A stretch of 64,000 nucleotides of DNA from Trichothermofontia sichuanensis B231 (GTDB lineage: Bacteria > Cyanobacteriota > Cyanobacteriia > B231): contig NZ_CP110848.1 of the NCBI RefSeq assembly GCF_026240635.1, forward strand, positions 3,925,741-3,989,740, in the 5' to 3' direction. Positions within the stretch are counted from its first letter, which is position 1; each line of letters opens with the position of its first letter. The notes below the pieces were generated by a model that saw only the letters and a program-made list of their open reading frames with translations, was not told the origin of the DNA and did not search any database. The position numbers and the translations under genes are program-made. Below, piece by piece: positions 5,762 to 39,041 of this stretch.

Positions 5762-5900
5762 GACCGTTGGCTGGTAACATCTCGCGGTACTGTCTGGGGA
5801 CCAAGCGTGGTCCATTTCATACGGATATCGTTCGGCGATCGACGTAAAGTTTCCCATCGCAGTCTTGACATTTGACCAGTCACCCAATTAGCGATCGCAC

Positions 5901-6114
5901 GGCTCTCCTGAGTTTATGGTGAGGGTGCTATGCGCCCTCACCATAAACTCGGCATTTGAGATCGTTTATTCGTATAGTCATTACAATTTAGGCTGAAACA
6001 ACACTCTCACCCCCCTCCCCTTGGGAGAGGGGAGGGGGAGTGAAAAACTGTATCGTTGTTACTTGGATTGACCATAGTTGCTTATACTATTTACCCCAAA
6101 GTTTCTGAAGAGCC
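5901..6114 (+). repeat. MITE-like element family A, copy A3, split by a family B element
   Basis: Starts GGCTCTCCTGAG and ends CTGAAGAGCC. The left 73 bp (hairpin plus ATCGTTTATTCG) and the right 38 bp (GTTGCTTATACTATTTACCCC onward) together reconstitute a normal A unit. They are separated by copy B1, bordered by TA on both sides. GATCGCAC before and GATCGCCG after share 6 of 8 bases, a possible eroded target duplication. Confidence 0.8.
5975..6074 (+). repeat. MITE-like element family B, copy B1, nested inside A3
   Basis: A 100-bp unit from TAGTCATTACAATTTAGG to TTGGATTGACCA, with flanking TA at 5973-5974 and 6075-6076. The ends are imperfect inverted repeats. The centre has CTCCCCTTGGGAGAGGGGAG, a hairpin core. 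Removing it with one TA restores the family A sequence across the junction. Confidence 0.8.
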
Positions 6115-6221
6115 GATCGCCGTATGCGATTCGGCGGGGGTACCCGCTGGGGGGTTAAACTGGAACTGGGCGGGTCTGTGGGGGAAAATTTACCCCCAGT
6201 CGCCCAACATAGCTGCAACTT

Positions 6222-14612: not shown

Positions 14613-14768
14613 GGCTCTGTACCCCCGATTCCCCCCAGTACCAGACTCCTTCTATTGTATGGCGATAGGGTATGGTTGTATGGCGATAGAGTAGGGCGAC
14701 CGTGATGAGCGATAAAAGTAATCCGGGCTGTTGGCCAGTCTGCCTGCTGAGGTGGGAAGTGCTGGTTA

Positions 14769-14867
14769 TAGTTATTTCAGATTAGAAAGAGATGTCTAAG
14801 CCCCTCTCTCCCTGTGGGAGAGAAGTTGGGGGTGAGGGGGCTGTTTCAGTCTCAATTGAAATGACTA
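14769..14867 (+). repeat. Family C repeat (variant of B), copy C1
   Basis: 99 bp from TAGTTATTTCAGATTAG to GAAATGACTA, bordered by TA on both sides. The right third (GTTGGGGGTGAGGGGGCTGTTTCAG) is shared with inverted B copies, but the left end differs, so the unit is a B-like variant. A second copy is at 38950-39041. Confidence 0.65.
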
Positions 14868-14890
14868 TAATCTCTAAATCACCTAATCCA

Positions 14891-23366: not shown

Positions 23367-23425
23367 GGCTCTCCTGAGTTTATGGTGGGGGTGCTATGCG
23401 CCCCCACCATAAACTCAGGAGAGCC
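23367..23425 (+). repeat. Short perfect-palindrome derivative of family A, copy A4
   Basis: 59 bp in which the GGCTCTCCTGAG end is present on both sides. The two 25-bp arms are exact complements and enclose a 9-nt centre (TGCTATGCG). The normal right half of family A is absent. It abuts the IS4 relic on the left and the small glycine-rich gene on the right. Confidence 0.8.
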
Positions 23426-38851: not shown

Positions 38852-38949
38852 AGGGACGGTCACATCGCGTCTGCGCGGGAGAAGGGCAAGTAGCTATTCA
38901 TATTTATTTATTCTCTTCTTTTTTTATTTTCTTTTATTTCTCCAAGATA

Positions 38950-39041
38950 TAGTTATTTCAGATTAGAAAGAGATGTCTAAGCCCCTCTCCCCCTGTAGGA
39001 GAGGGGTTGGGGGTGAGGGGGCTGTTTCAGTCTCATAACTA
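38950..39041 (+). repeat. Family C repeat, copy C2
   Basis: 92 bp from TAGTTATTTCAGATTAG to CATAACTA, flanked by TA, with the inner CCCCTCTCCCCCTGTAGGAGAGGGG hairpin. It is a shorter sister of C1 and lies in the spacer upstream of the DHH-like gene. The remaining spacer to 39188 holds nothing recognisable. Confidence 0.65.

What the first reader, a model, noticed from the sequence alone, without database searches (positions are those of the whole stretch)
5901..6122. Nested miniature elements: B1 inserted into A3 at a TA
The two halves of A3 join into a normal family A sequence if B1 and one TA are removed. This gives a relative age (A before B), defines B's exact ends (TAGTCATTAC...TTGACCA) and shows a TA target duplication. 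TA duplication is known for IS630/Tc1-mariner-type elements and their MITEs.
Basis: seen in the sequence. Interest (0 to 1): 0.65.

Follow-up and report, generated by a model that had tools for sequence, protein, structure and literature searches.

The report
One tiny transposon inside another
In this cyanobacterial chromosome a 100-base mobile element (B) has jumped into an older copy of a different mobile element (A) and duplicated a TA; it is real and well resolved, but it is an ordinary kind of event, and other sites show the two families landing in each other in both orders.

Summary
Removing B1 (5975-6074) and one TA from window 5901-6114 gives a 112-bp family A element, identical to the A consensus at 99/112 positions without gaps. 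A3 keeps its own decayed 8-bp target duplication (GATCGCAC/GATCGCCG). So A3 landed first, and B1 then entered at a TA.

The refutation test was run. A::B combinations do recur, but in differently diverged A hosts, each with its own 8-bp duplication, at two or more TAs. One (L147) has B in the opposite orientation at the same TA as A3. The nested Bs are not one lineage. They are repeated independent insertions, not a composite family.

Two corrections. First, "A before B" holds only for this locus: L041 shows A inserted into B, and most A copies are younger than B copies (24/42 have an identical twin, against 0/66 for B). Second, parents can be proposed. A's ends match a broken ISL3 relic. B's ends resemble those of a broken 908-bp IS630 relic, not those of the resident IS630 group (TACAGCC ends).

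B is abundant (about 320-400 left ends in 4.4 Mb) and absent as a repeat family from 290 other genomes of its class. Known kind, new families.

The parts
5893..5900 (.). left copy of A3's 8-bp target duplication (GATCGCAC)
   Evidence: 6/8 match to 6115-6122; 26 of 42 full-length A copies in the sample have an exact 8-bp duplication and none an exact one of 9 or 10 bp
5901..5974 (+). A3, left part (family A MITE; includes the TA that was the target of B1)
   Evidence: nhmmer match to A model positions 1-74; the empty A3 is 99/112 identical to the A consensus
5973..5974 (.). TA, left copy of B1's target duplication
   Evidence: 66/66 full B copies scored are bounded by TA
5975..6074 (+). B1, family B MITE, 100 bp, ends TAGTCATTAC...TTGACCA, GC-rich hairpin in the middle
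   Evidence: 94/107 aligned positions match the B consensus incl. TAs; hairpin z-score -3.46 as single-stranded DNA
6075..6076 (.). TA, right copy of B1's target duplication
6075..6114 (+). A3, right part (ends AGAGCC)
   Evidence: nhmmer A model positions 72-112 at 6074-6114
6115..6122 (.). right copy of A3's 8-bp target duplication (GATCGCCG), two mismatches

Best explanation
Two unrelated families of short non-autonomous transposable elements are nested here. First, a family A element (112 bp, ends GGCTCTTCTG, 8-bp target duplication) inserted between a cutA-like gene and the next gene; its ends match an ISL3-type insertion sequence, whose transposase most likely moved it in trans. Later, a family B element (100 bp, ends TAGTCA/TGGTCA) was cut and joined into a TA within A3 by a Tc1/mariner-IS630-type transposase, and repair of the 2-bp stagger duplicated the TA. 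Shown: the empty-site match, both target duplications, the genome-wide rule for each family, repeated independent B-in-A insertions and the reverse A-in-B insertion. Inferred: which transposases did it. Both proposed parents are now broken relics in this genome.
For: Empty-site reconstruction 99/112, gapless. TA at both ends of 66/66 scored full B copies and 8-bp duplications in A, 26/42 exact. Seven other A copies carry B, each A with its own 8-bp duplication (7-8 of 8 match; L145 read by eye): L144, L145 and L147 at the same TA as A3, L146 at what appears to be the same TA in an internally deleted A, L138, L139 and L140 at a second TA; L147 has B reversed. Apart from the pair L138/L145 and the very diverged B1 itself, each nested B is closest to a B outside these hosts; L138 and L139, same site and same A subfamily, share only 89%. 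A in B with duplication AACGATAC at L041. An ISL3 relic (L137 989-1873) has ends matching A's right end at 28/34 and 32/34 positions, and an ISL3 transposase fragment. An IS630 relic (L219 1407-2314) has a PF01710 match at E=1.4e-43 and a TA-bounded right end matching the alternative B right end (B2) at 17/19 and BL at 15/19; its left end is more diverged, 12/19. ISY100 of a cyanobacterium works with 30 bp of each end and duplicates TA (PMC2170065).
Against: No intact transposase with B ends or A ends was found in the assembly, so mobilisation in trans is inferred. B's match to the IS630 relic is confined to the terminal 19-29 bp. No near relative was found in the genomes and collections searched, so an orthologous empty site could not be shown.
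Confidence: 0.93

Rival explanations
1. A3::B1 is one member of a composite A+B family that moves as a unit with A's ends.
For: The A::B arrangement recurs: at least eight A copies in the genome hold a B, with seven of the eight Bs in the same relative orientation. A's ends are intact in most of them, so unit mobilisation is physically possible; L146 with an exact duplication AATGGGTA would fit. The Bs in L138 and L145 are each other's closest relatives (96.3%).
Against: B sits at two or more different TAs; L147 has B reversed at the A3 site; host A copies belong to different subfamilies (L138 and L139 differ strongly from A3 in the right half); L138 and L145 have B at different TAs; the two same-site same-subfamily cases L138/L139 have Bs only 89% alike, each closer to other Bs.
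Confidence: 0.04
2. B is moved by the resident IS630 group (copies at 97-99% identity, ends TACAGCCTTTCCC) and not by the relic type.
For: It is the only recent, multi-copy IS630 group seen in the genome, and it is also bounded by TA.
Against: Its ends do not match B (5-7 mismatches in 19, the background level). They match instead a third repeat family C (TACAGCCTTTACC...), seen for example in L125 and around L098.
Confidence: 0.1
3. The arrangement arose by homologous recombination or gene conversion between repeats, not by insertion.
For: Many dispersed copies exist, and B-left/B2-right combinations suggest that halves have been exchanged elsewhere.
Against: A clean 2-bp duplication at the breakpoints, restoration of an uninterrupted A, and the same signature in independent hosts are signatures of transposition, not of recombination.
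Confidence: 0.02

Closest known systems
IS630/Tc1-mariner elements and their MITEs (ISY100 of Synechocystis as the studied example)
   Same: TA target, TA duplicated, short imperfect inverted ends, no coding capacity in the miniature form; ISY100 mini-transposons with 30 bp of each end are mobile (PMC2170065)
   Different: B's ends are not those of the resident IS630 group; the only IS630 with related ends is a broken relic; about 320-400 left ends in a 4.4-Mb genome exceeds the 147 MITEs reported in Anabaena sp. 90 (PMC3542288)
ISL3 family and its MITEs
   Same: ends beginning GGCTCTTC and an 8-bp duplication (my own knowledge of the family); A's right end matches the ends of an ISL3 relic in this genome at 28-32 of 34
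   Different: A's left arm is a separate hairpin of about 45 bp, and only the outer 10-12 bp of that end resemble ISL3's
Small dispersed repeats and other MITEs of cyanobacteria, including Nezha (recalled, not tested) and the type II MITEs of Anabaena sp. 90
   Same: short, many copies, hairpin-rich, often intergenic
   Different: no sequence comparison with Nezha, the SDR families or the Anabaena MITEs was made

Membership tests
MITE of the IS630/Tc1-mariner type (family B) | insertion at TA with TA duplicated | tested here: met
   66/66 full copies scored; empty sites in A hosts
MITE of the IS630/Tc1-mariner type (family B) | terminal inverted repeats | tested here: met
   left TATAGTCATTGCAATTTAG and right TATGGTCAATCCAAATAAG agree at 14/19; imperfect
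MITE of the IS630/Tc1-mariner type (family B) | no transposase gene, short | tested here: met
   100-103 bp between the TAs; too short to code for a transposase
MITE of the IS630/Tc1-mariner type (family B) | ends shared with an IS630 that could act in trans | tested here: inconclusive
   only a decayed relic with related ends, right end 17/19 to B2 and 14-15/19 to BR/BL, left end 12/19 (L219)
MITE of the ISL3 type (family A) | 8-bp target duplication | tested here: met
   26/42 exact; 30/42 match at 6 or more of 8, against 2.4% for randomly paired flanks
MITE of the ISL3 type (family A) | ends shared with an ISL3 element | tested here: met
   28/34 and 32/34 with the two ends of the relic L137 989-1873; transposase fragment E=1.2e-19 to PF01610
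IS1595-type MITE (family A, considered) | IS1595 transposase in the genome | tested here: not met
   PF12762 has no match
both families | transposition observed with a purified or expressed transposase | not testable with these tools
   needs the bench

The most novel reading that the evidence does not exclude
Family B is a modular miniature-element system. One left end and a GC-rich hairpin core are combined with alternative right ends (BR, B2), so that halves are exchanged within the core. The same core motif occurs in 15 of 19 other genomes of the class, usually with other ends, and could be a shared functional core.
Probability: 0.25. Interest if true: 0.45.

Novelty: new member of a known kind. 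Interest (0 to 1): 0.28.

Why it matters
Nested copies give exact element ends, target rules and relative dates without any experiment. Here nesting in both directions shows that two (with C, three) transposition systems were active in overlapping periods in one cyanobacterial genome, and that a single nesting cannot be read as the order of families. The proposed parents are both broken, so these hundreds of copies may be fossils whose mobilising enzymes have been lost.

Tried and rejected
An IS1595-type parent for A was rejected: no PF12762 match. The resident TACAGCC-ended IS630 group as B's parent is disfavoured: its ends are at background distance from B's. A long BL...BR pair in L125 (9271-10535) is two separate copies around an ordinary gene. 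An IS630-like gene fragment in L213 lies between two B-type copies, but these are separate complete elements (BL-BR and BL-B2), and a C-type end (TACAGCCTTTACC) lies next to the gene. No close relative was found to show an orthologous empty site: the relatives offered are all of other families, and the genome-contig scan returned only distant genera, at 49-65% protein identity, with the window's own genome possibly left out. One match at one mismatch to B's left end in another genome (L150) showed no B-like element around it. Paper searches for nested MITEs with TA targets in cyanobacteria gave nothing on this element.

Full report
Setting. The window is part of a 4.44-Mb single-contig genome (window = G000:C1:3925741-3989740). 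The GCGATCGC-rich sequence and the cyanobacterial protein matches place it among the cyanobacteria. The relatives held are all from other families of the same class.

The observation. A3 spans 5901-6114. B1 lies in it at 5975-6074, with TA on each side. Removing 102 bp restores a 112-bp element that aligns with the A consensus without gaps at 99/112 positions; no other excision of 60-139 bp does better. A3 has its own 8-bp duplication, GATCGCAC/GATCGCCG, decayed at two positions.

The rules hold beyond this locus. In a sample of 1.264 Mb, all 66 full-length B copies that could be scored with flanks are bounded by TA, and sequence conservation ends there (the model includes the TAs, so copies that lost one may be under-counted). 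Family A has 8-bp duplications: 26/42 exact, and 30/42 with at least 6 of 8 matching, against 2.4% for random pairs. B's left end occurs 320-397 times in the genome depending on the mismatches allowed, with no match to the reversed control in this genome. In 290 other genomes of the class there is one match at one mismatch, with no B element around it.

Composite or nested. Searches with the right-hand junctions and the sample found seven more A copies with a B inside: L144, L145 and L147 at the same TA as A3; L146, an internally deleted A with a decayed right TA, apparently at the same TA; and L138, L139 and L140 at a TA about 17 bp further on. Each A has its own 8-bp duplication (7-8 of 8 match; that of L145 was read by eye). 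In L147 the B is reversed. The Bs in L138 and L139, which share a site and an A subfamily, are 89% alike and closer to other Bs; L138 and L145 are each other's closest (96.3%) but sit at different TAs. L095 and L098 are further, less clean cases. Independent insertion explains all of this; a composite family does not. Because two of the searches looked for these two junctions, the apparent preference for these two TAs is partly ascertainment.

Order of the families. L041 is the reverse case: an A of the young type inside a B, with the exact duplication AACGATAC. Among full-length copies, 24/42 A have an identical twin in the sample and 0/66 B do; median nearest-neighbour identity is 100% for A and 95% for B. 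A3 itself is an old A (88% to the consensus used). So A3 preceded B1, but family A as a whole did not precede family B; their activities overlapped and A's last burst is the younger.

Who moved them. A: an ISL3 transposase fragment (PF01610 E=1.2e-19; NCBIfam ISL3 4.1e-26) lies in an 885-bp relic whose two ends match A's right end at 28/34 and 32/34 positions. B: the genome's main IS630 group has TACAGCC ends and appears to be the partner of a third family, C. The only IS630 found with B-like ends is a decayed 908-bp element at L219 1407-2314, TA-bounded, with ends TATAGCTAATTCAATTAG and TATAGTTATTGCAGATAAGAATGAGA. Its right end matches the alternative B right end (B2) at 17/19, its left end only at 12/19, and its N-terminal frame is an IS630 helix-turn-helix at E=1.4e-43. 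Several other IS630 elements of the class also have ends beginning TATAG. That B was moved by this type is likely but not shown. The mechanism is taken from ISY100 (PMC2170065).

Structure. B carries a 10-bp GC-rich hairpin in its centre (z -2.45 for the consensus, -3.46 for B1) and A a 21-bp one in its left arm (z -7.60) as single-stranded DNA. In the sample, 84 elements have left end BL with right end BR and 16 have BL with B2. B's core alone matches sequences in 15 of 19 other genomes of the class (16 of 20 with its own), usually without B's ends.

Verdict. A correct, well-read nested insertion of ordinary kind. The added value is the test of the composite alternative, the correction of the age claim, and the proposed broken parents.

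Noticed in passing
window 14763-14869 and 38948-39035; L130 8957-9059; sample-wide: B-left ends are joined to two alternative right ends (BR in 84 elements, B2 in 16), as if halves were exchanged in the shared hairpin core.
   Followed up: partly
L125 9230-9500; L098 1240-1262; L061 997-2027: A third TA-bounded repeat family C (TACAGCCTTTACC ends) matches the ends of the resident IS630 group; one B-type element sits inside a C copy in L125.
   Followed up: partly
window 23367-23418: A4 is only the left hairpin of family A, a 52-bp near-perfect palindrome with GGCTCTCC at both ends; a solo half-element.
   Followed up: no
L014 and L022, at the B match: B ends appear doubled (TATGGTCAATCCAAATAATGGTCAATCCAAATAAG in L014), perhaps from an insertion beside another B end or imprecise excision.
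   Followed up: no
L078 12700-12840: A family A copy inserted into an older family A copy.
   Followed up: no
L213 1238-2030: An IS630-like helix-turn-helix gene fragment lies between two complete B-type elements.
   Followed up: partly
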